Positions 10,991-47,522 of a stretch of DNA of 64,000 bases are shown here, piece by piece; within the stretch, counting starts at the first letter, position 1, and the number at the start of each line of letters is the position of its first letter. The notes below the pieces were generated by a model. It had not been told where the DNA came from. It ran no database searches and was given only the letters and a program-made list of their open reading frames with translations. The DNA comes from Gigantopelta aegis (lineage: Eukaryota > Mollusca > Gastropoda > Neomphalida > Peltospiridae), in assembly GCF_016097555.1 (NCBI RefSeq), contig NC_054708.1, positions 1,058,382 through 1,122,381 on the forward strand. The letters run 5' to 3'. The position numbers were made by a program, and so were the translations under genes.

Positions 10991-11500
10991 CTAAGTTTTG
11001 GTCAATTTTCTTCCTCTCCGTGCCTTCTGGACTCGACCCCGCCCGCGACCCCTGGGAGAAACCTGCGTCTTCATGATCTCCTCGGTCGTCGATTTCGACT
11101 CGTCACTTTTCACATCATCTTCCTTCGCTTCAACTCCGGTAGAGCTAGCACTTTCTTCTTCAGCATCCGATTCAACAGAATCAACGATTTTGTAATTCTC
11201 CATGTCTTGTTCTTCGCCCGATGTCAATGTTTCCGATTCTTTTTTATTTTCTGTCTTTGATATTTCTTGCTCAATCTCCATCTTTGGTTTGGTTTTGTCA
11301 ACTTCCACGCTCAGCTTCTCTTGAGGCGGTTTGTTTGGAGTGGAATGATCAGCCTGCTGCTTGGCTTCTAGTGCATCATCTGTGCTGATAACCTTCTTGG
11401 CCGTTTTTACTTCTACTGCCAACTCTTTAGTGTTAGTACTTGGGGTCTTTCTCAAGTTCTCTTCACTTTCAGATTCCTTTATCAGTTTCAGTTCATTTTC
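10991..11500 (-). CDS. Exon 14: acidic tail and RGRG basic C-terminus
   Basis: 169 codons plus TAG, acceptor GTTTTGCAG. It encodes an E/K/S/T-rich disordered tail starting ENELKLIKESESEENLRK and containing acidic runs (SDAEEE, EAKEDDVKSDE). It ends with SPRGRGRGRVQKARRGRK and LTKT. The RGRG segment is a likely RNA-binding or arginine-methylation site and the basic end a second possible NLS. Base composition is balanced and codon-like, in contrast to the AT-rich flanks. Confidence 0.9.
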   Translation of the reverse strand, partial: ENELKLIKESESEENLRKTPSTNTKELAVEVKTAKKVISTDDALEAKQQADHSTPNKPPQEKLSVEVDKTKPKMEIEQEISKTENKKESETLTSGEEQDMENYKIVDSVESDAEEESASSTGVEAKEDDVKSDESKSTTEEIMKTQVSPRGRGRGRVQKARRGRKLTKT

Positions 11501-14500
11501 CTGCAAAACAGAGCAATTCTAAATGTCACTATTTTATGAACAAACAAAAAGCTAAAATCAGACATGAGATCAGTGATTTTCAAAATTCATTAGCCCTTAC
11601 TAAAAACAGACAAAACTTACAACATAATTATAATGTGGCCAAAATACTTGATAATAAGTAATATGTAAATCTGTTTTTTGGTGCAAGTACCATTAACTAT
11701 TCGCAATACATTAATATACTTTTATTTAATGCTATGCAGTGTACACAAGAAGTTAAAACCAGAATAGGGTATAAAAATAAAAATAATAATTCTTACTTTC
11801 GGTACAAATGAAAGTGGCTAATAAACATATTCTTTAAATCTCAGCCCATTTTCTTGAAAGCAGTCAAAATGTACAGAGCCACAAATTTTCATGTGCTTGT
11901 TGATAGACTGCTAAGCAGCTTGTATCAGTCTCATTAACAAATGTTATCATTATCAGAAAATTTATTGGGCGTAATGCAACCTAAAATGTTAAATGATCAT
12001 ATGGTGACTATTTGCATTAAGGTAGCAATCCATGTGTATGTAGTGCGTATTGCATAACGGGTAATGTGTAAACTACAGTTAAAATAGAAATCAATTGAAG
12101 TGCAATGTTAATTCTCAAACTCCTTGGTGATTGTTCCAATAGAGGAAGTAGGAAAATCAGGCATGATTTCACTGTAAGTAAAAGGCAAACATTTTATAAA
12201 CAAAAAACAGCATCCAACTAAAATATAAATTGGGGGGTGGGGGTGGGGGGTGGGTATAGTCTGTGCATGTATCATGCATTTTAGTATACTTTGGATTACT
12301 GTAGGTGCACTTTTTAAAAGTTGCCCCCACCCCGTCCATAAAACAAAAATCACACATCCGCCCCAGATATGATACTTCTGACATTTATTAATGTTACATG
12401 TGTTATAGAATCATAATTCTAGGTATTTTACATTTGTTTTATTTGTAATGTTAAAAAAGCAGGTAGATAATACCAGTCTATTCCTTTTTGTAATCTTCCT
12501 CCTAAAGGACAAACTTCACACACATTAACATATACATATATATGGAAACGGTTAAAACGCAGTACGCAATACGCATCGTATGCACATGGATTCCTAGCTT
12601 TATGCTTAAAATGTGTTGCACATTTTAATACATTTTTGAGTCTGTTCAACTTTCATATATTTATATATTTGAATAAAACTAAAAATGCAAGTACATTAAT
12701 TTTAAAATGGTTGAAAACTGATGAAAAATATATTAGATTTTGCATATGAATTAGGTAAACAAAACCACTTACTTCTCATGTTTGTTTTTTCACTAGTTGT
12801 TAACCTGACGTTACAAAAACACTAGCCATATGCTGGCATATTGTAGAAGCCCTCTTCAGATAATCAAATGGTGATGGAAACAAATAACACTAACACAAGA
12901 ATTACAAATTTAAGACTTTGTTATAAAGCTCCATACTGGACTTTCCAGCACTGTAAACAAATTTCTTATTGCACTGACCGAGACTAAATTCACGTAACAT
13001 TTTCATTCCTGTAATGTATGGGACCTACCTTCCAGTGATCATAATGTTGGGGACCTACCTGCCAGTGATCATAATGTTGGGGACCTACCTTCCAGTGATC
13101 ATAATGTTGGGGACCTACCTTCCAGTGATCATAATGTTGGGGACCTACCTTCCAGTGATCATAATGTTGGGGACCTACCTTCCAGTGATCATAATGTAGG
13201 GGACCTACCTTCCAGTAATCATAATGTAGGGGACCTACCTTCCAATGATCATGTTGGGGACCTACCTTCCAGTGATCATAATGTTGGGGACCTACCTTCC
13301 AGTGATCATAATGCTGCTCCAACTTAATGTTGGGGACCTACCTTCCAGTGATCATAATGCTGCTCCAACTTAATGTTGGGGACCTACCTTCCAGTGGTCA
13401 TGTTACTCTGACTTAATGTTGGGACCTACCTTCCAGTGATCATAATGCTGCTCTGAATTAATGTCGGGGACCTACCTTCCAGTGATCATAATGTTAGGGA
13501 CCTACCTTCCAGTGATCATAATGTTGCTCTGACTTAATGCTGGGATCTACCTTCCAGTGATCATAATGCTGCTTTGACTTAATGTTGGGACCTACCTTCC
13601 AGTGATCATAATGTTAGGGCCTACCTTCCAGTGATCATAATGTTGGGGCCTACCTTCCAGTGATCATGTTGCTCTGACTTAATGTTGAGGACCTACCTTC
13701 CAGTGATCATAATGCTGCTCTGACTTGCAGTGGTCAACTCTGGCAGACTGCTCAGACAAATAGAACTTGCGGTTTTTCTGACACAGCTGACAAGCATACC
13801 CCTGAGAAGGAATCACAAATTCCACCCCTGTGTGATAAACAAATAAGAAAACTATACAATACAATGTTTATGGTATTTTAACACATGTTTTTATTAGGTG
13901 AAAAAAATAATGTTAAAGTTCTAGTCACAAAACCTAACAGTATAGACTTCAAAACCAGACAGTGAAACTTACCAAAGGCTTTTCCAGAAACAAATGCAGG
14001 AATTTCAGTCTGAAAACAAGAAGCCATTATTAGTCAAACAGTCACAAAAAGTAATAACTAAAATCACTGGCAGTCAGTTATAAACAGTAACGTTGAAAGA
14101 CCATCACCGAGACGTGGAATGGTAGTTACTTGGAAAAAGCTGCATTTTGTAATAAGAATAAATATGAGAAATTTATTAAGAAATGGAAATTATGGAATCA
14201 TACTTTTTAGCAGACTCAATCCTGATGGGCGACAAAATAGTTCTGCACTAGGTAAAAACAGAGAATGTTTTGGTTTTTTGACTATTTTCATAAACAAGGA
14301 AAAACTGCATCATAAAAGACTGAAAAAAACAACAACTTCTATATAGTAACCTTTTATATAACAAGCTTAGTATATGAAAAACTCTCAAGTGTGTATTGGC
14401 TTATATTCTACTTTTCGTACAATGTGTAAATGTATGTGTGGCACTATAATACTTGTATATTGTGAAAATGGCGGGAAAAAGATTACTTGGTGTTTAACAC

Positions 14501-17500
14501 TGTGTGGCACGTGCTTACAAAACTTTTAAGAGTCCAGACTCAATCTCAAATGATGCCACATGCATACAACTTGTATGGCGTTGTCATAACATTAGTGTCT
14601 CAGACTCTATTAGAGTCTTAAGTCTACTCTAAAAGTTTTATAAGTACCAGGCCTGGAGTCAATATAAGAAATGAAATATGCTGCTACCAAATAGCTGACT
14701 CCTACCAAGTACCAGTAAGGGATGTTTCCAATACACAAGAAAACACATAAGCTGTTTGGCATACCACTCATGGGACACTGGTTTGGACAATGAAAAGCCT
14801 CACCAAGTCCACCAAGGAGGATTGATCCTGGAATTCAGCGGACCTCAGGTGAGGACTCCATACCAATGATCTGCATCCCGCCCACATTTACAAGTGAATA
14901 AATAAACTTATTTCCAACCTGGTCCAATGGTAATCCTCACTAAACAGGCATACTCAAAGCAAATTCGTCAACTTAAACATGTACCTTTTCAGAATTATTG
15001 GCAAGTCTGCTTGGATAAAAAAAAAAAAAAAATCTTCAAAAAATGCATTTGCTCATTGATTATCTTAAAAGAGCTACACACTAGAAAATATTAATTTTTA
15101 AAGCAGCCCACAACACAACTCACCTCTGATTTAAACTGCATCAAGTGATCATCGATTGTCTTTTTTATCAAGGCTTCTTTCTTGTCATTTACACACTGTT
15201 GATGGAAACAAAAAATATTTTACATCTAGCTTGTTTTAGTTCTTTTTCAAAATTAACATATGAAGGTGGGGTGTAGCATGAGTTTGTCTAACTCCAAGAA
15301 CAGAATAAAATTAAAATAAAATAGTTTAATGTAATGTCTAACAAAAACAGCTTAATCTCCAAGAATAACAAGAATATTTTATTTCAAGAGGTGTTAATAA
15401 ATGTTTAGTGTGCATTAAAAGACAATTAAACGAGGACAGTGATTAGCATAAAGAGTAATGTAGAGTAAATGTATTTACTTTTGAATGTTGCAGACTGGCT
15501 CTGTGTTTGTCCAGCTCTTTACCACTGGTGAAGGATGAAATCTTACATGCAGCACATCCTTGTTTTACAGCCTTCTCTCGCGCCTACAGACAGATAAGTC
15601 GCATTTCAATACAAATATAAGGGATGTCACACACAGCACATCCTTGTTTTACAGCCTTCTCACGCGCCTACAGACAGATAAGTCGCATTTCAATACAAAT
15701 ATAAGGGATGTCACACACAGCACATCCTTGTTTTACAGCCTTCTCACGCACCTACAGACAGATAAGTCGCATTTCAATACAAATATAAGGGATGTCACAC
15801 ACAGCACATCCTTGTTTTACAGCCTTCTCACGCGCCTACAGACAGATAAGTCGCATTTCAATACAAATATAAGGGATGTCACACACAGCACATCCTTGTT
15901 TTACAGCCTTCTCACGCACCTACAGACAGATAAGTCGCATTTCAATACAAATATAAGGGATGTCACACACAGCACATCCTTGTTTTACAGCCTTCTCACG
16001 CACCTACAGACAGATAAGTCGCATTTCAATACAAATATAAGGGATGTCACACACAGCACATCCTTGTTTTACAGCCTTCTCACGCGCCTACAGACAGATA
16101 AGTCGCATTTCAATACAAATATAAGGGATGTCACACACAGCACATCCTTGTTTTACAGCCTTCTCTCGCGCCTACAGACACAGCACATCCTTGTTTTACA
16201 GCCTTCTCACGCGCCTACAGACAGATAAGTCGCATTTCAATACAAATATAAGGGATGTCACACACAGCACATCCTTGTTTTACAGCCTTCTCTCGTGCCT
16301 ACAGACACAGCACATCCTTGTTTTACAGCCTTCTCACGCACCTACAGACAGACACAGCACATCCTTGTTTTACAGCCTTCTCTCGCGCTTACAGACAGAT
16401 AAGTCCCATTTCAATACAAATATAAGGGATGTCACACACAGCACATCCTTGTTTTACAGCCTTCTCACGCACCTACAGACAGATAAGTCGTATTTCAATA
16501 CAAATATAAGGGATGTCACACACAGCACATCCTTGTTTTACAGCCTTCTCACGCACCTACAGACAGATAAGTCGCATTTCAATACAAATATAAGGGATGT
16601 CACACACAGCACATCCTTGTTTTACAGCCTTCTCTCGCGCCTACAGACACAGCACATCCTTGTTTACAGCCTTCTCACGCGCCTACAGACAGATGTCGCA
16701 TTTCAATACAAATATAAGGGATGTCACACACAGCACATCCTTGTTTTACAGCCTTCTCTCGCGCCTACAGACACAGCACATCCTTGTTTTACAGCCTTCT
16801 CACGCGCCTACAGACAGACACAGCACATCCTTGTTTTACAGCCTTCTCTCGCGCTTACAGACAGATAAGTCGCATTTCAATACAAATATAAGGGATGTCA
16901 CACACAGCACATCCTTGTTTTACAGCCTTCTCTCGCGCCTACAGACACAGCACATCCTTGTTTACAGCCTTCTCACGCGCCTACAGACAGATGTCGCATT
17001 TCAATACAAATATAAGGGATGTCACACACAGCACATCCTTGTTTTACAGCCTTCTCTCGCGCCTACAGACACAGCACATCCTTGTTTTACAGCCTTCTCA
17101 CGCGCCTACAGACAGACACAGCACATCCTTGTTTTACAGCCTTCTCTCGCGCTTACAGACAGATAAGTCCCATTTCAATACAAATATAAGGGATGTCACA
17201 CACAGCACATCCTTGTTTTACAGCCTTTTCAAGCGCCCACAGACAGATAAGTCGCATATTTATATATATATAGTTACAGAGGTAGTTTTTACAGAGCGCT
17301 ATCTACTCCGGCTGACATTTGGAATTTAATATAAGAATCTTTCAGTTACGGAATAGATGACCCTATTGACAACATACCAATTGTTGGTGATTTTAATGCA
17401 AACGTATTTGAATACTTTAACTCAAAGATAAATCATTTGTGTACTCGATTTCAGTTGATACAACTAATCGACAAGCCAACAAGAATCACTTTAGACCTGA

Positions 17501-20500
17501 CATTTATTTCCTGTCCCCAACATGTAAAATACTTTAAACATGCTGAGCCCTTTCTGTAGTGACCACTCGTCAGTCTCTATTCAGCTTGGTAACAATGGTA
17601 ATCACAATGCAAACCACAGATTCTGACGAAGCATATGGGATTATTCCCTTGCAGCTACCTGCAGTTTAAAACCATTCTTCGCTGAGTTCGATTAGGAGCA
17701 CATTTTTGTAACAACTCAGTCGGTAACATTGTCACTAAACTAACAGATATTATCTTAAATGCAGCGAACTGATTTATCACATACAAAAACGTTTCAGCGA
17801 GCCTGTTACACCGTTATCGAACCGAGCCAAATAACCACGATTTCAAAACGTGATATTTTTTTTTATCAAAAGTGGTATTTAAACTCTTGATTTGATCGTG
17901 TAGAAACTACTTCCGGAAGTCGGACAATAGCAGGTGCCCAAAAGCATCGTGGGAATGGCATAGCCAACCTAAAAGTTATGTGTTTTCAAATTTTAAATAA
18001 AATACTTTGATTATATGTCTGTTGTGTCACATTACAATTTTTGTATCTTTTCTGTGAAAGTAAACTCAGGTGTGTGACCCAAAGAAGATCTATGTACATT
18101 ACTGACTGTGACGTCAATAGACAAAACCACATATATGTAGTTTTGTATTTATTACATACCCTAAACTGGAATTTTGTTTCTAAATAACAGTTCAAAAATT
18201 TAACACTGCTAGCTAATGACGGGGATTTCTAAATTTACACGACTAGGTCAGCTGTGTTACTATGCGGACCGATGAACCACCAATTATTACACATAGGAAT
18301 GTAGTTTTATTTAAACAATAAACAGAAATAAGAAAGAACGCGTGAAAAGTTACCTATAATTTTAATGATATTGTTTGAAATGCCTTTTAAAGACAATGTA
18401 ATAGCTAAAATTCACGAACAATATAATATTTAATTTGCTCGTAATATGTCAAAAAACCTTCAGCGTGCCAGTTTTATCAACAAAGAAAAATGTCAAGAAT
18501 TGTTCACTCAATGTCTGTGTCATCATCGGTGTTTTCTTTTATTCATGGAATTATTCGTTGCTGAAAAGTTTAAGTTTATATTAAATGTGCGTGAGGAGAC
18601 GGTGCACGTCCTTGTTGCTGAAGTTGACGAGAGTCACTTTTCGCACCCTTGTTTTGGCTTCGTACACAATAAATATAGCATATCTTATCGTAATTTCACT
18701 AGAAATCCATATTTCGTAAAAGGTACACTTTTTTAATCACAAGATTTTGTTCAAACACATTCAGGTGCATTAGTAATGTTAAAAAAAAAATTCAAAAAAA
18801 GTTCAATAGCAATTTTACAATGGAATTTTTCCAAAAAGAAAACGTCATGTACCCAGTTTATGGTTATTGTAAGGAGATGCAAAGTGACGTCATTGGAATA
18901 CTGACGTCATTTAAATTCAAAATTAGCTGTATTATTACAATGCTTCGCCACATTAAAATAAAAACTAGTCTACTAACCGTGACCCCTATCAAATTCCTAT
19001 AACAAGCAGACAATGCTGTTTACAGGTCAGTATTTTTTTTTTTTTTCATAATTCTGGACAAAATATTAATTTGAAATTTTAAAAGATGAAAGAAATAAAA
19101 AGTACCTTTTGTAAAATATATCATATCACAAATTTACAGTTGGAGATGTTTTATTTATTGTGTACGAAGCCTAAACAAGGGTCCAAAAAGTGACTATCGT
19201 CGACCGTAACTATCGTGGATTAAAAGCTCGTTAGTAGTGTTCCCGTCTCAAGGTTTGATATCGCGCTCATTAAATTGTAAATATTTGTCACCATTTTTGT
19301 CTGTTTTCAGTTCAAAATAGCATTTTAAAAATGCATAACAGTTAACTGCTTTACTAGGCAATTCAAACCAAGCACCAACTTTGTTTACATATCGCGAAGG
19401 GCATTCCCCGTAACCATGTGCTATAAATAGTAGCGTTGAATATGGTATAGTTCCGGCAGTTGAGTTGAATACAGAAAAGTGTATTTCATTTTTGTATTCA
19501 GGACTATATTTATATAGTAAGATTTAACGGGTATGTAATAAAACGCTGTTCCCAATGTAAACATTTTTTGCTGGAAGCTACCTGCTTTTTTGTTTAATTA
19601 AAAACACTGGCTAGTTCCGAATGGGAGCGAATAGTGGAAAATTGAAAAATAAAAGGCAATTTGATGTTGCAGGAAGTGTAAATGTTATATTTATTTATGC
19701 AGTTCCACAATTATTGCTGGAAATGGATGTTTGAAAAAATTAGCAACCAAAGCATGGTCATTGGCAGAATTCATTTCCTAGTAACATGAACTCAGACTTA
19801 GAACATATACATGACTGGGCAAAACGTTGGCTCGTCTAATTCAGTCCCTTAAAAACTGAAACTATGACATTTCTAAAAAAAAGATGCCAGGGGTGCACAA
19901 ATCGGTTGTCCGCGTGCCCAGGACAACCAAAATATGTTGTGGGCAACCATTCTTTGTCAAACAGTTGCCCCGACGGGCAACCAAGAAAATCATAAAACAA
20001 GTAAAATGAAAAACAAAATTTCCCGACACTCAGACAGTCACGGGCAATTCAAAAGTATCGAAACTGATAACTTGACTGACAGGCAATATAAATATGCACC
20101 CTAACGCTGCCATCCACTCAGCGTCCACCGTGCATAATTTTGACGAGTTCAATGCAGACAGATACGTTTCAGAATGGTGGCTATTAGCAAAGGGCACAAG
20201 ACATGTGAAAGGTCACAAACTACACCAACAAGCATCCAGTTCTGAGCTAAAAATTTGGCTAAGCCATTTTCTATCTTCCGATGTGAACAATCGGTTACAT
20301 AATCTATTCGACACCTAACATATAATAATAATACCAAATATTAACAGGGATCTCGCGACTGGTAACGAGAAGCGGTGTCATAAAAAATTCAGCATAACAA
20401 TGTTTGCTTATTTTAATAATCAGTTATTAATTTTAACGGTAACATGTATGCAAGCGTGTTATTTTAATTCTGTAAAGTCTTTGAGCCAAAGTAATAAAAA

Positions 20501-23500
20501 CGGACTGAAATTGCGTGTCAGTTTCAATACACATGCCAGTTCAGGGCCAAAGACAAGTAGGCTAGGGCCGAGTTCAGGTAGACCAAGCAAAACAAAAACG
20601 TTAACTAAACTGGTTTATGCGCTTCATGTTAAACCCAATGTCCATGTCGGGAACCAATCGCATAGTTCGCGAACGTTTGGAAAACGTTCGTTGGCTGTTC
20701 TCAGTGTGCATATAGGTCACGCTTGACAGTCAGCCGAGACTTGCACGTGTCAAAAGACATTGTTGCAGACATTAAACAATACGATTACACGCAAGTAAAT
20801 CTTGATGTAAATTTGTGAGAAAAAACCCCACCACCAAATAGTTGTTCGCATTAATGAATACTTAATTGCTGTTTCGTTTGTTTATTTCCGTTGTCTTTGT
20901 TAATTTCGCACTCATGCATTTCACGATCGCGGAAAAGGAACATGCAGTATTTATACAAATTGCGGTTAAACGTACACTGAATACAATTAGTTTACAATAA
21001 TCATGCTATTTGTTATATAAAATATTACATAAATTTGTTGACTGTGAGGTGACATCTCAAAAGTTAGCTAGATTTTAAAAAGACCGCAAAATTTGAATTC
21101 ATTATCTTTTTAATCAAAACCTTTTAACATAAATGAACAGTTGTCATAACGTGAAGTCAGCATTCTTAGGCTACGTATTTTACAAGCTGAAATCAACAAC
21201 AAGCATTTAACACGACGCAGAAATCACCAAAATGGCGCAAATTACGAAACTGTTGGGGTGTGGAATAGATGGGTTATTTTAAAATACAATTAAAAACAGT
21301 TAAAACCAAAATAAAGATTGCTATTTTACAGAAATAATGAGCACAGTTTAAAAAAAGAAGAAGAGTATTGGCTCTCAGATTTTTATTAATGCCATAGGCC
21401 TTAGAATTTTGAGTGTGTTTGCAGAGGGCATTGGCTTCCAACTCTGCATATCTCCCCTCACCCACTGAAAAATCAAAGTAATATATTAACTGCCCCTACC
21501 CCCATTGCTGTCTTTGATTTTGATCGGGGATAATTTTGTTATTCAGATGTATTCCAGTTTGTACATAATTAGCTGAAAAGATACAAGTTTCATATTCATA
21601 TATAAATACTCTATACAGTACTACACAAAACATTTTTGGCTAAAACATTTTCATTATGGCAAATAAAAATCCCATTTGGCAATTTTTTTGGCAATAGGTA
21701 TTTTTAATCTTGGATGAGCCCTGAGTTCATCAAGTATTATGATTGTGACAGCCCAAGCAAAATCAAACCACCTCTGTGGATCCATTCAGCTGATTGGCTT
21801 GTTTCTCGTTCCAACCAGTGCACAACAACCGGACAAAGGCTGTGGTATGTGCCTTCCTGTCTGTGGGAAAGTGCATATAAAAGATCCCTTGCTGCATTAG
21901 GAAAAATGTAGCAGGTTTCCTATGATGACCACGAGTCAGAATTACTAAATGTTTGACATCCAATAGCCGATGATTAATTAATCAGTGTGCTCCAGTGGTG
22001 TCGTTAAACAAAACAAACTTTTTTTCAGCCTAAGCGAAGATGAGCTGTAGATAAATAATGTTAAAAAAGAAATAAAACTAAACTAATAAGTAATGATAAT
22101 AATAAAAACATTTTAAATTTCAGTTTCATTTTAAAGAAAGTTCAAAATTATATTCATAAAACGTTTTATGAAATATGTGGGCAACCAAGAGATGATGTTG
22201 GGCAACCAAACTTCAGCTACTGGTTGCCCACCGGGCAACTATCACAATTTCACATTTGTGCACCCCTATATGCCCTTAATAAAACCTAAATTGTACCTAG
22301 ATAACGTTACTGTGAAAGAAACTGACCATCACAAACATTTAGGATTAACATTCCAAAACAGTGACGAATGGTATCTTCATATCCAGAACATTATAGAAAA
22401 AACAATCAAATTTTCTCCACTTGCTAAAATACTGGCTCTCTAGAAAGTCGCTAGAAAAAATATATTGTTCATTTATTCTTCCAGTCTTTGATTATGCTGA
22501 CATAATTTGGGATAACTGTACCCTTTATCTATCAGAACAGTTAGAAAATATCCAGCTTGATGCTTTACGCATTATCTGTAGGGCTGTTCGTGGGGCATCT
22601 TACCAATCGCTGTACAAAGAAACAGGACTTACACTGAGGAGGAGGAGGAGACACAAAGTATGTATGATGTACAGAATATGTAACAGTCGCTCTCCTAGAT
22701 ATTTGTCCATCCAACTACCTCGAACTGTCGGTCAAATAAACAGATATTCCCTGCACATTAAATCATATCGATGTCGTTCAAAATTATATTCTGAATCTTT
22801 CTTCCCATCTAGCATTAATTTAAGAAACAATTTGTCAATAAATATTAAAAATTCTACATCGATCAGTTCTTTCAAGAAAAAATTAAAAGCAAAAGATTTG
22901 GCAGTCCTTGCACATTTTTATGACGGCAACAGAAAGCTACAAATACTGCACTGCAGACTTTGATTAGGAATAGTTATGGCCACAAATTTACACACTTCGT
23001 TGGAGATAATCCACATTGTACCTGTGGTCATCACGTTGAAGACTGAACATTTCCGGTTATTTTGCCCTCTATATAATAGAGCGCCAGTCCTACTTACCTA
23101 GGTTAAATCATTTAAATTTAAATATCAACACATTATTAACACAACAAGAAAACAGTCTCATCTGCAAAGCAATTCACAATTTCATTACTGAAAGCAAACA
23201 TTTTGACTGATAAAACCGTTCACTTTCTCCTTTATTCTTCTTGTTTCTCTGTTCTAATCTATATACAATTATTTATATTTTGACAGATTAAATTTACAAT
23301 AGGTTTACATTCTTCAACACTAAATGCATATCCTGTAGTTTCTAAAATGTCCATGTTGACCAGTTAATATTTCAATTGTATAATGTAAGGAAATGTCTTT
23401 ATATAGGCTATGCCTGTTGACCAATCCCATCTGTTAATATAAACAGAAATAAATATTGTTTCAACCAAATTACATATTAATACAAATACAACAACTGAAA

Positions 23501-26500
23501 CTAAACTAACCAAACAAGTACACAACAAGATCTGCCTCTGATTGAGCCCCTGGCCTCTCAGAGGCCAAACCCTGGGGTGGACATGCTCAAAACATTCGTG
23601 GTATATGAGTATGTTAAAGCATTACGCACGCACAAAACAAGTAAAACATTTCTTATATATTAATCATAATGACTGAAGCCAGATCTTTTCAGCATTACAA
23701 GTCTGTGTGAGGAGTTTCATTCTGCATCAGCAAGTAAACCCGAATGAATGTGAAAACTACCTTATGTGAGGCCAGCTGATGGTGAACCTCCAACGAAGAG
23801 TCAGTTCTCACATTGCAGATGTCACACAGTGACGGGCTGAAATGACAAACAAGTATTGTCTCATGGTCAACATTTAACTAATAACCAGTGAAAAGACAAA
23901 CAAGTACAGTTCATTACTAATCACTTGTCTCATTATAAACATGTAACTAGTTATAACCAGTGTGATTACTTTCAAGCTACCATTGGAACTGAAATGTTTG
24001 GGGTTTTCTCACCTAATTGTCTTTATTAACCAACAAAATGTAAAAGATCAGGTTATGTATACGAAACAAAAGTAATACATGAAACAATTAGCTCTGTGGT
24101 CTAGTTGATAAGCTGCTGGACAATCAAGATGACGACAGTGGTTCAAATCCCGTCAAAGCTGGCTCACACTTTCATTCATCTTTCTCATCTATCACCCTCT
24201 GCCTATCATTCTCATTATCTTAATATAATTACAAACTTTCCGAATTTATACGATTTACTGTATTCTGATTGGCTGACGTCACTAAAAAACCAAGCGTTAT
24301 CCTTCCATAAACCTCATAAAAATACGTCATCACGGAAGACCAAGATCGATTGGAACTATTTTTAGCTGGATGGGCGAGAAGCCCAATGACCCAGTTCGGT
24401 GATCGCTTTAAAAATAGAACAAGGAAGTGACCTGTTTTCTCGATTAAAAAAATAAGGGAAACTGGATGAGATATTCATGTTATAAATAAAAAAAATTTAC
24501 AATATATTTTTTATTTGTTTTTATTCTGTTAAAAAAAAACCCCAAAACATCCAATAGTATGTATACATGTATTCCTACGCTTATTTACAGAACATGGCTG
24601 ACGGTAAGAACGAAAGAAATTATTTTTGAGTGTTTTAAGGTACACTTCTTGTACTGTTTGTAATTATAAGAATTGTTTCTCATTTTTTAGGAATTTATCG
24701 ATGTATAAGTCACAAATGTAGTCTTATATAAAAAAGTTTCTAATTTCTCCTACGATTTCAATTTGTTTCAACCCTGTCTGTCACTTTCCTCTGACTCGGT
24801 CTTCTGAGCTGTCCACACCATACACTGTCTACATGTCCTCCACAGATGCAGTCTCTATGTACCTCCCTATATCCATCTGGCATCCTCGTCCTCTGTCGCT
24901 AATAAAGTCGATCTGACCCATGGCTCTAACTAATGAACACCGGTAGTAGGGGAGCACAGTAGGTGGTTACAAGTATCTCTTAACAATGCCAAAAGTAACT
25001 ACTGAACACTCTCCGAAGTGCTCAGACTAAGCCCCTCAACTAAAAGCTGATGGGACATGGCAGGTGGGTTACATGGATAGTCACAAGAGACCAGCACCTG
25101 TTGCGGATGGAGGACTGGGATGTGGAGGTGGACAGTGAAAGACGTTGAAAGCTAGGAGCTGGCAGATCGGGAAGAAATTAGGTGGAAGTCAAAGGAGAGA
25201 AAGGAAAGGGGGCAGTGGGATAAAAAAGAAAAAAAAGAAAAAAACTATTACAACCATTTAGTAAAATACTATGCTATGAAATTATTTTGCCAATTAAACC
25301 AACCTGTGTTTCTGCACTTCTGGAGTTTTTGGCTTCTTCAAAACATTCAGCAACTGGAATAAAACAGTAAATAATAATATATTTAATGCATTCTGCAATA
25401 AAACTGAATCTAATACCCGACACAGGTTTCATCAGAGTTAGACCCAAGTGACTGGTATTGTGCTACTGTAAAACTGAATGATCACCTTATTTGCTTGCTT
25501 AACCATAGTTTGACACCCAATAGCCGAGGTATTTTTCGTGCTGGGGTGTCGTTTAACATTCATTCATTCATCTCACAGACAGGGTAGTACATACCTCGGC
25601 CTTTGATATACCAGTCGTGGTGCACTGGCTGGAACAAGAAATAGCTCAATGGGCCCACCGACGGGATCGATTCCACACTGACCGCTCATCGAGCGAGCGC
25701 TGTACCACTGGGCTACATCATGCCCCACACACCGTCAGAAGACACGGACAGTGCTCACACTGAGGTGGAGGATCTTTCTTCAAGATAAATGAATGAGTCA
25801 AGTAAGTATGACCAATTCGAGCACGACACAAGACAATTTCATCCTTCCTGCACTGCCTATAGGAGGAATGCCACTCTCCCGACTGGCTTGACAGCATGAA
25901 CCTTGTTCATAATCACACCATCCCAACCATGTTGCCAAGTCGAAAGGCAAATCCAAAGCAGACTTGGCAGCTGAATCTGTCTTCTCATTACCCCTGATGC
26001 CAACATGGCTGGGCACCCAACCTATAAAACTGAGTCTAATAACCTTCTGGTGTTGCAAGCTGGCTTGATGCTTGTCAAGTTCTTTACCGTCGGCGAACGA
26101 TGAAACAATGCACAGTTCACAGCCCTTCTTTATGGCATTCACTCGATTCTACAAATGAAAGGAATATTTGCTCTGAATCCAATAAATAGAGACTTCCCAA
26201 ACATGTTGGGCAGGCATGTGTGCAAAGTTAGAGTGAAACAATTTTTCTTTCTGTTTGTGTATGTATATATTCTAGTTTGAAATCAAATTAAATGACATTC
26301 CTTTATGATAATCAACTTCCTGTTAGTTTTTGTAGTATCCTTTTTCTAATAAGAAACATATGTGTTTGTCATCATTATGTAATTCTTATAAGTGCACCAA
26401 CCTCAGTGAACACATACCCGACTGCACTGTGGGGCAATATGTCCCGTCCATATAGTGATATTCATTGTGAGCGCTTGTATAAAACTTTCCTCAGTGTAAA

Positions 26501-29500
26501 ACACACAAAACAGGACGCTATTGCTGGCATTTGCGACTAGATGCTATGACCTACAAAGCGTATGTGCACTCTATCAGTAAACTATATCCTATATCTTACT
26601 CCACACATTTGAAAGATGTTTTACGTCAAGCACAAAGTGTCTGTGGATAAAAATGAGTTAACTCTCCGACTAACTAAAACCAAAATCGATTAGTACCTCA
26701 TGTTGTTTTAGTGCATTGTGATATTCCAAGGGTCCTTTGACTTTAAAATTACACGCCTCACAGTAAAACATCCTGGAATATAAATCATATCATTAGTACC
26801 GAATACTGACGATTCAGTCACTTTTCCTTACATTTATAAATGATATTCATAACAAAACTTTAAATAGTAAGATATTACAAATTAAAAACCACCGTCTCGC
26901 ACAATAATATAATCATATGATATCCTGTGTTTTTATACTGACAACAGGTGAACAACATTTGATTGAGACCCCAAGCGTCAAGTGTGTCAAAGTGTGCACC
27001 AATTATCACAAGGTTACAAACAAATCTCAGGTCACCTATGTGCATGATTTATATCAGTTAATTTAGTTGTCCTCAAAATCATTTTCAATGCTTACATTGG
27101 GTTATGTAAATGTAAAACAGAATGTCACAGGGCTTCTAGATTATGGTAGCCCCACTTCCATGGTTAACGATATTCAATGTTGGGCTAGTAAAAAACTACT
27201 ACTGCCATGTTCAATGACTAGTGAAAAAAACTTGTCAAATGCTGCATGCAAGTCTATTTTGTAAATACGAATATCCTAACCCCACTCCCGCCCCTACTCT
27301 TAGTGTTGTTAAGCTCCATCTCCCTCTTTAGGTGACATATCTGATTATTACTATTGGTAAAATTGTATTTATTTGAAGTAAAGTAGGGCTGGTGGAATTT
27401 TAATTGTGGCCAGTAAATTTTAAAAATTACTGATCCCATGGCTAATGAATTTTATAAAAATTATAGAAGCCCTGGTGTTAGTAAGCTAGAGCCCGTTTTA
27501 TCACTGATAATACCTTGTGTAAATGTAAACAGGGTGTTAGTAAGCTAGAGCCCGTTTTATCACTGATAATACCGTGTGTAAATGTAAACAGGGTGTTAGT
27601 AAGGCAGAGCCCGTTTTATCACTGATAATACCTTGTGTAAATGTAAACAGGGTGTTAGTAAGGCAGAGCCCGTTTTATCACTGATAATACCTTGTGTAAA
27701 TGTAAACAGGGTGTTAGTAAGGCAGAGCCCGTTTTATCACTGATAATACCTTGTGTAAATGTAAACAGGGTGTTAGTAAGGCAGAGCCCGTTTTATCACT
27801 GATAATACCTTGTGTAAATGTAAACAGGGTGTTAGTAAGGCAGAGCCCGTTTTATCACTGATAATACCTTGTGTAAATGTAAACAGGGTGTTAGTAAGCT
27901 AGAGCCCGTTTTATCACTGATAATACCTTGTGTAAATGTAAACAGGGTGTTAGTAAGGCAGAGCCCGTTTTATCACTGATAATACCTTGTGTAAATGTAA
28001 ACAGGGTGTTAGTAAGGCAGAGCCCGTTTTATCACTGATAATACCTTGTGTAAATGTAAACAGGGTGTTAGTAAGGCAGAGCCTGTTTTATCACTGATAA
28101 TACCTTGTGTAAATGTAAACAGGGTGTTAGTAAGCTAGAGCCCGTTTTATCACTGATAATACCTTGTGTAAATGTAAACAGGGTGTTAGTAAGGCAGAGC
28201 CCGTTTTATCACTGATAATACCTTGTGTAAATGTAAACAGGGTGTTAGTAAGGCAGAGCCCGTTTTATCACTGATAATACCTTGTGTAAATGTAAACAGG
28301 GTGTTAGTAAGCCAGAGCCCGTTTTATCACTGATAATACCTTGTGTAAATGTAAACAGGGTGTTAGTAAGCCAGAGCCCGTTTTATCACTGATAATACTG
28401 TGTGTAAACGTACGTAAACTCTAATATCATACTCACTCAGCATTCTTCGCATGCAGACTTTCTTGCTGCTTCACTTTATTCTAAATGAGAGTTAAAAAAC
28501 AAAGCAATTCTAGATAGGTAATCATGACATACAAAGAAGGTAAATCAATTACTTTGTTCATCAAGATATGCATCAACCTAGTGAAGGTTTATTTTACTTA
28601 TTGAAAAATATAGTTGAGGTTTATTTTAATGTTCAGCTACCAAGTTCTACAAATGGTACCATCTTAGAATCACTGCAATATAACATTAAACAAGTCTGTT
28701 CATTTTATAAGCTTTTACAGGTGAACTCTGTTGAGCAATTAATAACAAAAATACATAAATACAAAAAGATCACCAATTCTGTATTGCAAGTAATACCTGT
28801 GGTACATTTTTACACTTGTGTAAGACCAGGACAAATGCTTAGTAGTACATTCCCCTTGATCATCAAGTCAGGTTTATCGCACGTTGTCCAGCATGTACCA
28901 TGTCATTACTGATTATAGAAGTTTAGGGTTTATATTGCTTATCATATTACGATGTGTTAAAAAACCCAAGTAACGTTAGCTAACTTGAAAAACTCTACCT
29001 TGTGTGAGATTGACAGAATGTGCTGCTTGAATGGCACAGAAATGTCTGTGCTGCAAACATCACAATGCACTGGGCTGGAAAACAAGTAGATTCAAATGTT
29101 AAACACCAACATGAAAACAATACCTCAGCTTCCGAAGTAAAGTTTTAGAAAGGTTCTTACTAGTGTATGTGTCCAATATGTTTACAACACAAACAGTATT
29201 TATAGGATATTAAACGAGCTTCCATTTCGTATCATGTTTATGTCCCGAGTGAAATAATTTTTAATTATCACGAGCTTTAGTGAGTGACAATGAAAATTAT
29301 TTCAAGAGGGCCATAAACATGATATGAAATGGCAGCGAGTTTAATATCCTATTTATTACCCATAATCGATCTTAATTTATATCACTCATCTCGTTTCGTC
29401 GATGTTCCTGTAAGGTTGTGCGCCAATTGATGACGTCATCATGTAATGTCAAAAGTGTTATGTCTCACTTGGCGTTCTAGTGGAATGTATCACTTTGATA

Positions 29501-32500
29501 TGTATCAAGATATTTTTAACCATATGGGCAATATTGAAGAATATGCTACAACTGGACTAGAATCAGTTTACCAATAAAGCACTGTAATTGATTCTGTACA
29601 CATTTTCATAGTTGTTTAGTAATACAACAGTGGTGGTAGATTCAGGACAAATGGGAGGAGTCCACAGAAAAAACTATCAGTCACATTTGGATTGTTTTGA
29701 GAAATATTGATTTTAAAGGTTGCCCAAATGTGTTCAGATGCACGTCTCATAAACAACGTTGAATACTTTACTGATGTTACTGATGAACATGTTACATTTT
29801 TGTTGATTTTATTTTTTAAATATAATATTATGGAATTTATTTAATTTATTTAGTCTTGTGGACATTGATAATTATTTTCTTAACGTAAATATGTTTTTCA
29901 GCAATGAAGGCTAGCAGAATTGTTTACTGGGAGAACAACATAACAATTTTAACTTGCTTCACAAGTACCCAATGAAACCATACAGTCGATAAATTAGAAT
30001 AGTGAAAATAATCTCTATTTTATAAAAATGTGATTTGGATAATTTTTCCCATGGACTCTTCATATACTTACTAACAAAATAATCTCTATAAGAGTACAAT
30101 TTTTTTTAAAATTACTAACACTTTTCCTGGGCTTTCTGCAGACACATTCCGTTTTCTGTCACGCTGCAAAAAAGAAAGAGTCAACAATATATCATCAACA
30201 TCCAATATCAAGTTATAATACCAGTCATTAAAACAGTACTCAGCTGTAAGAGTACTAAGACCAGTCAGTTAAATAGTACTCAGCTGTAAGACCAGTCATT
30301 AAAACAGTACTCAGCTGTAAGACCAGTCAATTAAAACAGTACTCAGCTGTAAGACCAGTCATTAAAACAGTATTCAGCTGTAAGACCAGTCATTAAAACA
30401 GTACTCAGCTGTAAGACCAGTCAATTAAATAGTACTGAGAACGTGACTTATTTGTTGAAGTTATCCATTGCTTTAAAATTAACCTTTTCAACTGAATTTC
30501 GTTTACTATTTTAAAACAGACTGATGCTCTGTTTATTTTTTACTTTTTGACTGAAGACATTGACTATTTCAATTTTTTTGACCGATGCTGTTTAGTATTT
30601 TAAAACTAACCTTTTTTCAACTGATGTTCTGTTTAACAATTGTTTTAAACAAACCTTTTTTTTTTTTTACCGATGCTGTTTAATATTTTTAAACCAATCT
30701 TGTTTTGACCGATGCTGTTAAGTAATTTAATTTTTAAACCCTCAGTTTACTATTTAGAAAAACACTTACTGACGTTTACTATTTTAAAACAAACCTTTTC
30801 GACTGATGCTCTGCGTTTTCTTGGCAGTCCTCGATCACTTCTGACACCACGAGCAACATTCCGGTTTCTGAGCAAGCGTGACTAAAATGTAAGCAGTCAG
30901 GTTAACAATGTCTAAAGTATCAGCTCACCAGACTTTTACTGATGATGTAAAACAGAATACCAATTCTGAACCAACCAGATGTTTAGCAGTGTTGTGAACA
31001 GAAATGGCTTTTCTTGAGTCTACCATTAAACTGTCAGAAACTTGTTTTCTAGGCAAGATTAACACCAAAGCTACCGGTATATTTCCCCTCCCATGGTGTT
31101 AAATTTGAGGTTTTTTCAAAAAGACACGAATAGTCCCTGTTCTCATGTGATGATAACCTGAGACATGTGATGACCACATAAAATAGGTATAGAGCCAAAA
31201 TGAAAACCTGAATTCAACATGGAATGCAGCCCTGTAAATGTATTTTTTTCTTCTTTTTTTTCCAAGAATGCTGTAGTTGAAACTGTTAATAAAATGTGAA
31301 GACATCAGATGTACTCTGCTATGTAAGCCGACCAGGAATATCTCAGGAGTTAGACATTACAACTGATACCAACCTATTAGTGACCGATAATGGAATTAGA
31401 GCCACATTACTGACAATCCAACATCAGTATCCTAAAACAGCAATGTCCAAATTTCAGGCTGCCTTTTATGTGACACTTCAAAAGTGACAGCGAATCTTTT
31501 AAATATCTCTTAGAAGACATGATCCTTATCGTTACACACTGTCTGAATTATGTTCAGTGTTGTCGCTGCACACGACTCTCCCACCATACACTGTGAATTG
31601 ATACTGCTGTAGCAGTAGTGTGAACTGATATACCAGATAAATAATGTATTATCCGACATTACCATATCACATACTGTGTGGCTGATCCTGCCAAACTAAA
31701 AATTTATAAATCGACACTGCTTTATCAGATACAGTGTGGCCGATATAACAATACCACATTGTGTTAAATGGCCAATATAGCAATACCATGTTGTGTTAAA
31801 TGGCCGATATAGCAATACCACGTTGTGTTAAATGGCCGATACAGCAATACCACGTTGTGTTAAATGGCCGATACAGCAATACCACGTTGTGTTAAATGGC
31901 CGATACAGCAATACCACGTGGTGTTAAATGGCCGATACAGCAATACCACGTTGTATTAAATGGCCGATACAGCAATACCACGTGGTGTTAAATGGCCGAT
32001 ATAGCAATACCACGTGGTGTTAAATGGCCGATACAGCAATACCACGTTGTGTTAAATGGTCAATACTGCAATACCAGATATCGTGTGAACTAAGTTAGCA
32101 TATTAGAAGGTGTGTTAACTCCAATTCATGACATATCAAATATTGGGTTAAATCGAGGGATCGAAAATATACACTATTCTGCTATTTGGCAAATATCGAG
32201 TTTTAAAATCAAATCTTCCAGCATCCCATCATGAAACTTGCAATACAACACGGAATTTGAAAAATTCATACATGGCTATTCCATCTTCACTTGCTTATCT
32301 TCCTGCATCCCATCATGAAACTTGCAATACAACACGGAATTTGAAAAATTCATACATGGCTATTCCATCTTCACTTGCTGCGCTCTTACGCTAGTCTTGA
32401 AACCTTTTTTTTTCTTTTTGTTTTTTTTACGAATCAAACAACTTTACTGAATTAAAGTAATGTGCTGGGTGCATTCGATTCTAGTTCTCATTGGAACATA

Positions 32501-35500
32501 TATTGAGTCACACTCACTTGATCGTTGTGCCGTTTTGTGTTGCGCAACATAAGGTAACTGGTTAAGCGAGCAGTGTTGTACATGCCTAGTTATTTTGCCG
32601 TGCAATTTATATGGGATAGAAATAGTGTTTCTTAAAATTCACTATTCCGTTGGAATACTGGTAAAAAACCCACCTAAATTTCAACCCTGAAACCAAGAAT
32701 GACCGTGGTATTCCAAACACTCTCTAAACTGTCCTTGGCGTAACAAACATTACGTGTATTAATACTCACAAATAAGTGTGAATTAACACTGGTATACTAT
32801 TGGCAAATGAGATACTGTCTGAACAAACACTGGTATTCCAGATACAGTGTGCAATGACATTGCCATACCACATACTGGGTCAACTGACATTTTACACATT
32901 TCCAGTTCACGCTCATCTATTGTAGACTGTAAAGTGTCAACATATGCCAATGACATCGCACGATTTAACAAATATACGAATATTAGGGCTCACCCTGTCC
33001 ATTGCCAAATTAGCCATTTGCTAATTTTATACAAAGTGGCTACAACCTTTAGTCTTTGGCTAGTAAAATGCTCCTTAAATCAACCACATTTTAATAATTT
33101 TCCAGGAAATCCTCTATATATCTGAAAGTTGGCTAAACCAAAATGTGTTCCAGTGTGAGCCCTGGCTATGTCAGCAGTTTTCCATTTACTGCCAACTTGT
33201 TTTCAAATTATCAACATATCATCTTTTGACTTGACAAAGGGAGTAATACATTTTTTGCATCCAATTCTTAAAAAAATATTAATGCATGTGAGTGTATTTA
33301 CACAGTCAGGTTAATGTATGAATATATGGGGTGTTAGCAGTGCCAATATTAAAAACGTGATCAGTGGAAGTAATCAAATCATATCCACTAAAGTAGCTGT
33401 TCTTTGTAAGCACTAGACCAGTGTTTGAAATAAGCACTTGTCCATTTGTCCAAACTGAAAATCTGCTTGGACAAACAAATTTTACCTTAATGGTTGTGCT
33501 ATGGACAAGTAAAAAAATTTCAATGCAGTTTCATTTTGAGAAGTAAAAAACATTGTCTTTGCACTTAATGAAACAAACCATTTATTTGGACAAGTGAAAA
33601 TATTGGCGAACAAGTAGATTTCTAGATGTACTTGATCGGTGGACTAGTCAACAGTTTTGCTTATTTCTATCACTGTAGACATTAAATCTTGTCTGTGACC
33701 ATGAAATTAAAAGGTTCACATTTGAGAAAAATCCAAAGAGAACCATTTTCATACTTGTGATAATGACAAAACAAATACGTAATCAAGAGAAACCATCCAT
33801 ACATTGGAAGCGACTTTTGTCCACCATGTATCCTTTCAGAATATGCAGATCCCATGTACTACAAGAAGCACTTGACCATTAGTGAGTCTGATCTCAACTT
33901 GACTGACATGGTCATGGTAAATCATACGGAGCCTCTACATCACTCACTCTTCAAGCTTGTTTTCAACAACATAATAAACTAAATTCTTACCCTTATTTCC
34001 AAACTGCGTCTTTGAGTTTCAAGCAGTCTTGCTCGGTCTTTTAATCGCTGGCTCATTGTACGAACCAGAGAACTGCTATGGAGCCGAGTCTGAGCTCGGG
34101 TTCGTAAGTTCTGGCTCAACATTTGTCGCTTCCTCATAAGTTCTGCAATCTGACGCTGCCGCTTCATCAAAGTGGCTTGCATTAAGATGGTTTTCTCCTG
34201 AGCCTGCTGTTTGGCAATGGTCACTTGATTTTTCAAAGCCATTGCTCGAGCTTCTTTCTCTATCAACTGCTTGCGTGCTACTTCCTGTTCCATCTTTAAC
34301 TTGCCAATTTGCCTCAATTCTTCCTGTTTTTTTCGATCTTCCATCATTCTCTGTTGACTGCTCAGTGCTGAAAGGTGTCCTTGATCAATGTTCTGCTCTG
34401 GCATCATTCTACGGTTACTTCTTAGCATTTCAAGGCTTCTTGTACTGCGCAGTGGTCTGAAATCTTTTCTTGTTTCTTTGAAACCATGTCTTCCTCGGTC
34501 GTCTTCTTCACTTATCATTTCTATATCTCTTAGCAGGGGACGTCCCATGCCTCTCATCTCCTGGCGTTTCTTAAAAAAAAATTGCTTATTTCCTTCTCGT
34601 TCTTGCTGTCGCACAATCTGTCTCTTAAACATGCTACCTTCCTTAACCATGCTCCTCACGTCTTGTCGTCTGGTATCAAAACCCATTTGTTTCCGTGGTA
34701 ACGAGTCTTCTTGTACAAACATTTCTGGCCTATTTGATTTCTGTGTAAAATAACTTTCGAGCTGCATGTCTTGTCTGCTTGGACTCTTTGCAAACAATCC
34801 CTCTTGTCGCCCTTGACTTCTTGATCGCATCTGACTAGCATTCTGATTTTGGTTGAAAGCTGACACATTTCCAACAAAATCCATATTCCTGATCTGACCT
34901 CTAGAGGCAACTACCTTGGAGTCGTCGTCAGTGAAATCTTCATCAGTATTTCTTCGAATGACATAATCCAGTCTGCTGGTTAAGTTTGATCTCCACACAT
35001 TATCGTCCTCGTTCATGCGATCACCACCTCTATTGTAACTGTCCACTCGCCGACTTCTTCTTTCTAAGACACTCTTGAAGTCGGTCGGCTTATTCGACGT
35101 ACTGTAGCTGTCAATGTTTTGAAAATTAAGCATCTTCGAGGAGTTACTACCAAATGTGCTGCGGTTATCAAAGGTACTCCCAGTGCCACCCTGAAAGTTA
35201 TATTTATCCAGTGGCTTGTCATAATTTCTGTTCGTGCCCTTGTTATAATAGTCACTGCGAGAATCCTGTGTACCTGAATATCTAGGGGAATCGTACGTCT
35301 GCGTGTTCAAAGCTGGCCTACTGTATGTGCTTTGAGACAAAATCGGTTTGCTCATCAGTCTATGGCTATCTGATGTTTGGTACCTTTCCGTTTTGCCGAA
35401 TGAAGTGAAACTACTGGAAGTGCCTCCAGTGGTAGTTCGGTAACTATCAATGTCTACTTTAGTTCTACTTAACAAACTCTCATATGGCTCTTCATCCAAC

Positions 35501-46978: not shown

Positions 46979-47522
46979 CATTTAATGTCTAAATACGTTG
47001 TTCACATAGGGACATCTTGGAGAGAGTCTGTAATGTTCCATCACTGGGTCGTCTGTCTTCTTCCATCGGAAGACGCAAAGTCCACAACAGTAACAAGTGA
47101 TGGCATCGTGGTCTCCCGTGTAACAGAAACCGGCCTTGGCTAGTTCCTTTGGTTTTTTACTCATCTGGATGGGCCACCGAGCATACGTCAGCATCCGGGC
47201 ATAGAAATTTCTTGTTTTGGGACAATAACAGAACAAATAACGTCTCGAATACCAGTCATCCTCATGGGCAGAATTTGTGGCATACTCACGAGCTGCATCT
47301 GTCAATTCGTAAAAAGTAGCCTATGTGGCTACAGCGGGTTTCCTCTAAAAATCTGTGTGGTCCTTGACCATATGTCTGACGCCATATAACCGTAAATAAA
47401 ATGTGTTGAGTGCGCCGTTAAATAAAACATTTCTTTCTTTCTGTCAATTGGTCTTCATCTTCAGCATCGTAGAACACATTTTCTTCGTTCCAAATAGAGT
47501 GCAACAAAAAACAAAAATGTTA
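46979..47522 (-). pseudogene. BIR-domain (IAP-like) ORF, interrupted by a SINE
   Basis: The minus-strand frame from 47307 to a TAA near 46979 encodes a complete BIR domain: an arginine/tryptophan lead (ARWP), AGFCYTGDHDAITCYCC, then a tryptophan, DDP, EH and a final cysteine, which gives the zinc set C-x2-C..H-x6-C. The frame also continues on the far side of a SINE: 47449-47520 encodes an acidic stretch (EENVFYDAEDEDQLTD), and the two parts join in frame when the SINE (47308-47440) and one copy of its 9-bp target repeat CTGTCAATT are disregarded. No ATG is found before a stop at about 47522. BIR proteins bind caspases or act in cell division; both host genes and molluscan DNA viruses carry them. 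Here it looks like a retrocopy, or a fragment of a mobile or viral element. Confidence 0.75.
47308..47440 (+). mobile_element. SINE family 1, 3' half, with 9-bp target duplication
   Basis: It carries GGCTACAGCGGGTTTCCTCT, TGTGTGGTCCTTGACCATAT and the tail TAAATAAAACATTTCTTTC. CTGTCAATT flanks both sides (47299-47307 and 47441-47449). Inserted into the BIR frame. Confidence 0.9.

What the first reader, a model, noticed from the sequence alone, without database searches (positions are those of the whole stretch)
13018..13705. A second minisatellite has multiplied the 5' splice site of the matrin-finger exon about 20 times
The 30/46-bp unit contains the last codons of exon 13 (HYDHWK) and GTAGGTCC. 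About 20 copies keep an AAG|GTAGGT donor, stronger than several genuine donors of this gene, which begin GTT. The proximal donor gives the modelled protein, and reading past it hits a stop. The distal units form a ten-residue open repeat, so they could be exonised as a pseudo-exon only if a new acceptor arose. Competing U1 sites in tandem are an unusual arrangement.
Basis: partly seen in the sequence, partly recalled or inferred. Interest (0 to 1): 0.85.

Follow-up and report, generated by a model that had tools for sequence, protein, structure and literature searches.

The report
Snail minisatellite copying a splice donor
In a vent-snail gene, the end of one exon and the start of the next intron have been copied 20 times in a row; the annotated protein fits use of the first copy, as in the 'mirages' known from amphioxus genes, and related genes nearby show the same kind of copying at other exon edges.

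Summary
The window is from the vent snail Gigantopelta aegis; the gene (LOC121384462, multi-zinc-finger, minus strand) has 14 coding exons. The array at 13012-13726 holds 20 copies of the exon-13 donor: 16 AAG|GTAGGT, 1 CAG|GTAGGT, 2 AAG|GTAGGC, 1 AAG|GTAGAT. The NCBI protein is letter-identical to the first-donor model. Each of the other 19 donors meets the same stop (976 instead of 1140 aa); for 17 it lies 83-650 nt before the last junction, so NMD is expected. Donor columns are not significantly more conserved than the rest. This is a 'mirage', a minisatellite duplication of an exon/intron boundary, a kind described in amphioxus. Most likely exon definition pairs the first donor with the exon's acceptor and the extra copies become intron (inferred; no RNA seen). 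Other arrays copy the exon-10 acceptor of this gene and a paralogue's donor (43 motifs). In three annotated paralogues 9 of 25 arrays lie within 50 nt of an exon (1.6-2.0 expected; post hoc). Against a general link, genome-wide tandem donor triplets are no commoner than a reversed control, and two chaperonin-family loci hold no array.

The parts
10991..36005 (-). Span of the 14 coding exons of host gene LOC121384462 (multi-zinc-finger protein, 1140 aa)
   Evidence: Spliced model letter-identical to NCBI protein P0001
13697..13827 (-). Exon 13, zinc-finger exon (matrin/U1-like by resemblance), 131 nt; acceptor cacacag|GG, donor AAG|gtaggt
   Evidence: homologous finger exons at six other places of the fetched genome stretches
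13012..13726 (-). Boundary-spanning minisatellite of 27-46 bp units; 20 donor copies, the first being the donor of exon 13 (last exonic base 13697), the last with last exonic base 13029
13679..13681 (-). In-frame TAA met when the first donor is read through; shared by all 19 distal-donor products
12990..13337 (-). 115-aa stop-to-stop frame over the distal units, mostly repeating HYDHWKVGPQ; no evidence that it is translated
11501..13696 (-). Intron 13, 2196 nt; donors 2 to 20 lie in its first 668 nt
10991..11500 (-). Exon 14 (last coding exon), acceptor gttttgcag|GAAAAT
15550..17257 (-). Second boundary-spanning minisatellite of the same gene: multiplies the acceptor of exon 10 (12 decoy acceptors within 2 bits of the real one)
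15479..15583 (-). Exon 10, whose first 34 bases are part of the acceptor array

Best explanation
This is a 'mirage': a small tandem duplication spanning the exon-13/intron-13 boundary that grew into a 20-unit minisatellite. Shown: the units are copies of the last codons of exon 13 plus the first intron bases; the annotated protein uses the first donor; all 19 downstream donors give the same early stop. Inferred: birth by a 30-bp duplication between two CATTA copies, one in the exon and one in the intron, 30 bp apart, followed by unequal exchange that also made 46-bp units. Inferred: splicing stays correct because exon 13 (131 nt, upstream intron 145 nt, downstream intron 2196 nt) is recognised by exon definition, which pairs its acceptor with the nearest donor; the 19 others are then removed with the intron. 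Inferred: rare slips to a distal donor give transcripts subject to NMD. The array is thus mostly splice-neutral intron growth, and the same rule would make the acceptor array of exon 10 harmless.
For: 20 donor copies in register with the exon end. The NCBI protein equals the first-donor model; the paralogue whose donor lies in an array with 43 AAGGT motifs is also annotated through its first donor, HYHLWK|KSQVQK. 19 of 19 distal donors give 976 aa, with the stop 25 and 54 nt (donors 2 and 3) and 83-650 nt (donors 4-20) before the last junction. Donor columns vary in 4 of 180 cells, other columns with at least 10 residues in 22 of 413, Fisher p=0.125, so no clear constraint on the decoys. The CATTA spacing equals the 30-bp unit. 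In five exon-defined minigenes with two equal donors the upstream one was used exclusively, and for human exons with a short upstream (<250 nt) and long downstream intron the upstream preference was heightened among near-equal donors (PMC9225289, abstract, Results part 1 and passages). Amphioxus mirages are reported not to disturb regular splicing (PMC3087553 and PMC3902484, passages).
Against: No RNA was examined; the NCBI model may rest partly on ab initio prediction. Exon definition is taken from human data, not shown for a snail. In the same human data downstream donors were preferred in about 60% of events before donor strength was equalised. Five-base direct repeats across the donor within 40 nt occur at 12 of the gene's 13 donors, so the CATTA pair proves little. 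The constraint test is weak: 20 units, cells not independent.
Confidence: 0.8

Rival explanations
1. The distal donors are used in a regulated way, so that donor choice sets the level of productive mRNA through NMD (alternative-splicing switch).
For: 15 of the 19 distal donors equal the first in their nine bases, and 17 of 19 place the stop 83-650 nt before the last junction; the protein has several zinc fingers, and autoregulation by NMD is common in RNA-binding proteins (recalled).
Against: The one protein returned for this gene, with one member sequence, has no read-through (that search drew on residues 665-900 only and would not list untranslated NMD transcripts); decoy donors show no significant constraint; exon-size and proximity rules favour the first donor.
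Confidence: 0.1
2. The array is kept because many U1 sites just inside the intron strengthen recognition of the first donor or protect the transcript from premature polyadenylation.
For: 17 of 20 units match U1 at 7 or 8 of 9 positions; four of seven homologous exons have GTTTGT donors, while both exons with donor arrays have GTAGGT or GTGGGC.
Against: No significant conservation of donor columns over the rest of the unit; tandem donor triplets are not enriched genome-wide over the reversed pattern; a third homologous exon has a strong GTAAGT donor without a donor array.
Confidence: 0.06
3. Intron or exon gain in progress: a unit becomes an exon, or a new intron arises between units.
For: A mostly ten-residue open repeat runs through the distal units; such a route is proposed for amphioxus globin genes (PMC3087553, passages).
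Against: No acceptor-like site within the array scores above 5.4, weaker than 13 of 14 genuine acceptors; the annotated protein contains no repeat.
Confidence: 0.04
4. The array is an assembly or collapse artefact.
For: Tandem arrays are prone to misassembly; copy number cannot be checked here.
Against: Units differ from each other and come in 27, 29, 30, 42, 43, 45 and 46-bp forms; arrays of other sequence occur at several other exon edges.
Confidence: 0.02

Closest known systems
Amphioxus 'mirages' (Adh3, globins BflGb6 and BflGb9, TnC, PGBD5)
   Same: Minisatellite-like tandem duplication spanning an exon/intron boundary, at donors and acceptors; units of 10-160 bp; many but not all units keep AG/GT signals; regular splicing reported not disturbed (passages of PMC3087553 and PMC3902484).
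   Different: Here in a gastropod, with 20 copies (43 donor motifs in a paralogue). Allelic and somatic instability, described there, could not be tested. No RNA seen here.
Human IFI6 (6-16) minisatellite with multiple splice donors (Turri et al. 1995; paper not held; cited in PMC4526556, passages)
   Same: A minisatellite offers several donor copies in tandem.
   Different: In IFI6 two downstream repeat units are used as donors and give further isoforms; here every downstream donor leads to a stop.
Internal tandem repeats at exon-intron boundaries of human genes in segmental duplications (PMC2812944, passages)
   Same: Minisatellite units at exon-intron boundaries in duplicated genes.
   Different: There they change coding exons or form new introns; here the annotated protein is unchanged.
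Intron gain by tandem duplication of AG|GT proto-splice sites (Rogers; discussed in PMC3087553, passages)
   Same: The unit contains AAG|GTAGGT, so AG and GT are duplicated together.
   Different: Needs a usable acceptor between copies; the best one here is weaker than 13 of 14 genuine acceptors.

Membership tests
Mirage (boundary-spanning minisatellite) | Repeat unit contains both exon and intron sequence of one splice junction | tested here: met
   46-bp units carry AAGTCAGAGCAGCATTATGATCACTGGAAG of exon 13, with substitutions in some, plus about 16 nt of intron
Mirage (boundary-spanning minisatellite) | Many units keep the splice signal | tested here: met
   20 of 20 keep AG|GTAG; 16 of 20, the real donor included, are AAG|GTAGGT
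Mirage (boundary-spanning minisatellite) | Authentic boundary unit used, regular mRNA | tested here: inconclusive
   Annotated protein equals the first-donor model; no RNA examined
Mirage (boundary-spanning minisatellite) | Copy-number instability between alleles or tissues | not testable with these tools
   Only one assembly is held
IFI6-type multiple used donors | Downstream repeat donors give further protein isoforms | tested here: not met
   Donors 2-20 all lead to the same stop, 976 aa
Intron gain by proto-splice duplication | Usable acceptor between duplicated donors | tested here: inconclusive
   Best acceptor-like site in the array scores 5.4 against genuine 3.5-11.9, weaker than 13 of 14, by a crude recalled matrix
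Recursive (ratchet) splice site | Polypyrimidine tract followed by AG|GT | tested here: not met
   Upstream of most AG|GT is ATTATGATCACTGGA, not a pyrimidine tract

The most novel reading that the evidence does not exclude
In this snail, minisatellites are born preferentially at exon edges, so that donors and acceptors are repeatedly copied into arrays while exon definition keeps splicing unchanged: a targeted, splice-neutral route of intron growth, and a mutational source for new splice isoforms, outside cephalochordates.
Probability: 0.25. Interest if true: 0.72.

Novelty: new member of a known kind. Interest (0 to 1): 0.45.

Why it matters
It extends mirages from amphioxus to a mollusc, in one gene with both an acceptor array and a donor array and in a paralogue with a donor array. 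Such natural multi-donor exons let the exon-definition proximity rule, tested in the paper I read with paired donors, be tested with 20 or more near-identical donors in order. The clustering of arrays at exon edges, if it holds beyond this gene family, would point to a link between tandem duplication and exon position; one conceivable cause is break repair, since programmed meiotic breaks are over-represented near exons in humans and insertions are favoured in tandem repeats at hotspots (PMC7615360, passages). Searches of the held library for minisatellites at splice sites in molluscs or gastropods listed no such report: 12 of 76 papers listed; 2 of 2, of which I saw passages. That is not proof that none exists.

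Tried and rejected
Selection on decoy donors: 4 of 180 variable donor cells against 22 of 413 in other columns with at least 10 residues, p=0.125, and cells are not independent, so not claimed.

Chance of boundary overlap in this gene: 2 of 26 boundaries lie in arrays. The answer depends on the null. For seven homologous finger exons, 4 of 14 boundaries lie in or within 3 nt of an array, expected 1.34, P=0.033; without the one that is only adjacent, 3 of 14, P=0.14. Over three annotated paralogues, arrays that overlap an exon edge: 3 of 25, expected 0.99, P=0.077.

Arrays near exon edges (post hoc, one gene family, arrays of 60 bp or more): 9 of 25 within 50 nt; expected 2.13 by random placement, P=0.0002; expected 1.56, or 2.00 after masking 23% of the cluster as dispersed repeats, P=1.2e-5 and 8.4e-5, by uniform birth points. 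If the null share were doubled, P=0.002; at a share of 0.2, P=0.047. Leaving out the three boundary arrays that prompted the question: 6 of 22, P=0.002, 0.006 or 0.047 by null share. Per gene: P0001 P=0.007, P0002 P=0.053, P0004 P=0.004. Incomplete masking is a real confounder if mobile elements avoid exon edges, as a title on mammalian introns suggests (PMC3088655, listing only).

Donor-like content of arrays: of 38 of 59 arrays (period 20 or more, 4 copies or more), 5 had shuffle p<=0.05, KS p=0.46, so no general enrichment. Of seven arrays whose edges I looked at, none showed an obvious exon end there; one later proved, by eye, to resemble an exon-1 donor 320 nt away.

Genome-wide donor triplets AGGTRAGT x3: 2010+2221 hits against the reversed control 2240+2260, no enrichment. 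Hits overlap, so long arrays weigh heavily (one array gives 74 of the listed hits), and simple repeats are hit too.

Two Cpn60/TCP1-family loci, one of them part of a gene (17.6 kb, 12 exon segments by family match): no array at the same TRF settings.

Pfam gave no domain above its cut-off for the fingers tested; weak matches were to zf-met, zf-C2H2_jaz and zf-U1 in paralogues, and the paralogue P0002 carries precomputed zf-met and jaz domains. PDB gave no match.

Full report
What was found. The window is C10:1058382-1122381 of a 1.149-Gb genome. The protein LOC121384462 of Gigantopelta aegis, which the window encodes letter for letter, lies on a contig of nearly the same length (91,665,651 against 91,664,263), and the published genome is 1.15 Gb in 15 pseudo-chromosomes (PMC7895826, passages). 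G. aegis is a gastropod of order Neomphalida.

Gene. I built a 14-exon model on the minus strand, 36005 to 10991; its translation is letter-identical to the 1140-aa NCBI protein. Four of the exons entered my model only after that protein was seen, so the identity is an agreement, not a blind test; the exon 13-exon 14 junction was in my model before. It encodes a finger that resembles matrin/U1-type fingers; no Pfam model passes its cut-off. A Haliotis homologue found through a paralogue is named 'zinc finger protein on ecdysone puffs-like'.

The array. TRF gives 13012-13726. There are 20 donor copies: 16 AAG|GTAGGT, 1 CAG|GTAGGT, 2 AAG|GTAGGC, 1 AAG|GTAGAT. The 46-bp units hold 30 nt of exon 13 and about 16 nt of intron; the 30-bp units lack the first exon part. 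Units 14-20 are nearly identical, proximal ones more diverged, which suggests recent growth at the far end. With the array taken out, exon and intron each hold CATTA, 30 bp apart, which would give the 30-bp unit in one step; such 5-base repeats are common at donors, so this is weak.

Consequences of donor choice. The first donor gives 1140 aa. Donors 2-20 all give 976 aa ending HYDHWKVGPQH, with the stop 25 and 54 nt (donors 2, 3) and 83-650 nt (donors 4-20) before the last junction; by the usual 50-55-nt rule (recalled), at least 17 of 19 are NMD substrates. By a recalled matrix the first donor is second of 13 in the gene, and four genuine donors begin GTT. The best acceptor-like site within the array is weaker than 13 of 14 genuine acceptors.

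Why splicing can stay correct. In a human data set, exons with near-equal donors and long downstream introns favour the upstream donor, and in five exon-defined minigenes it was used exclusively (PMC9225289; abstract, Results part 1 and passages). Exon 13 is 131 nt with a 145-nt upstream and a 2196-nt downstream intron; with that paper's cut-off of 250 nt it falls in the short-long class, in which the upstream bias was heightened. Before donor strength was equalised, about 60% of human events favoured the downstream donor. The abstract states the matching rule for acceptors, which would cover exon 10: its acceptor is copied at 15550-17257, with 12 decoys within 2 bits, and use of any of these 12 gives an in-frame stop at 883 aa. 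This step is inference; no RNA was seen.

Paralogues. The finger exon has homologues at six other places. In the neighbouring gene (P0002, 599 aa) the donor of the homologous exon is copied in an array of different intron sequence, C10:1133507-1135460, with 43 AAGGT motifs including the first, and the annotated protein again continues from the first donor. At C10:1031072-1032461 the acceptor side of another homologue is copied. In the gene of P0004 an array 320 nt inside the intron after its first coding exon repeats, by eye, that exon's donor. By eye these arrays share no intron part, so they arose separately (inference). In one of four 10-kb stretches taken without regard to genes (C3), a 5 x 102-bp array repeats what looks like an exon end with CAG|GTAGGT; that exon has no confirmed homology.

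Is it general? In three annotated paralogues 9 of 25 arrays lie within 50 nt of an exon, against 1.56-2.13 expected; this was tested after the fact, in one gene family, with incomplete repeat masking, and weakens as the null is made harsher. True overlap with an exon edge, 3 of 25, is not significant (P=0.077). Against generality: tandem donor triplets are not enriched genome-wide, arrays in the sampled stretches are not donor-rich overall, and two Cpn60/TCP1-family loci hold no array. Array coverage is 15.7% in the 184-kb cluster, 1.3% in 80 kb around two distant paralogues and 3534 of 40000 bases in the four other stretches.

Known or new. Amphioxus 'mirages' are the same kind; the original Adh paper is not held. 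The human IFI6 minisatellite is the closest case with used distal donors (the 1995 paper itself not held). The present case is a new member, in a mollusc. The novel part, clustering at exon edges, remains open.

Noticed in passing
window 15550-17257 (-): A second boundary-spanning minisatellite in the same gene copies the acceptor of exon 10; 12 decoy acceptors are within 2 bits of the real one, and each of the 12 would bring in an in-frame stop.
   Followed up: yes
L022/L007; C10:1133507-1135460 (+): Paralogous gene (P0002) has an array of different intron sequence copying the donor of the homologous finger exon, with 43 AAGGT motifs.
   Followed up: yes
L016; C10:1009530-1010246 (-): A 33-bp x 21.7 array repeats, by eye, the donor (ATG|GTGAGT) of the first coding exon of the P0004 gene but lies 320 nt inside the intron.
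   Followed up: partly
L018; C10:1031072-1032461 (-): Array copying the acceptor and first codons of another homologous finger exon.
   Followed up: partly
L026; C10:50540882-50541118 (+): A 37-bp x 5.8 array ends 3 nt before the finger exon of a distant paralogue, over its pyrimidine tract.
   Followed up: partly
L033:7349-7868: In a stretch of C3 taken without regard to genes, a 5 x 102-bp array repeats a likely exon end with CAG|GTAGGT and an acceptor-like CTGTCTAG|G, so a unit could look like exon plus mini-intron.
   Followed up: partly
C1:719698-722732 (-), not fetched: Long array of about 32-34-bp units, most ending in CAG|GTGAGT; 74 of the listed pattern hits fall here.
   Followed up: no
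window 27474-28412 (-): A 59-bp x 15.9 array begins 24 nt after the donor of exon 5 without copying it.
   Followed up: partly
window 46982-47320 (-): Open frame that by eye resembles a BIR (IAP-type) zinc-binding domain; not tested with any library.
   Followed up: no
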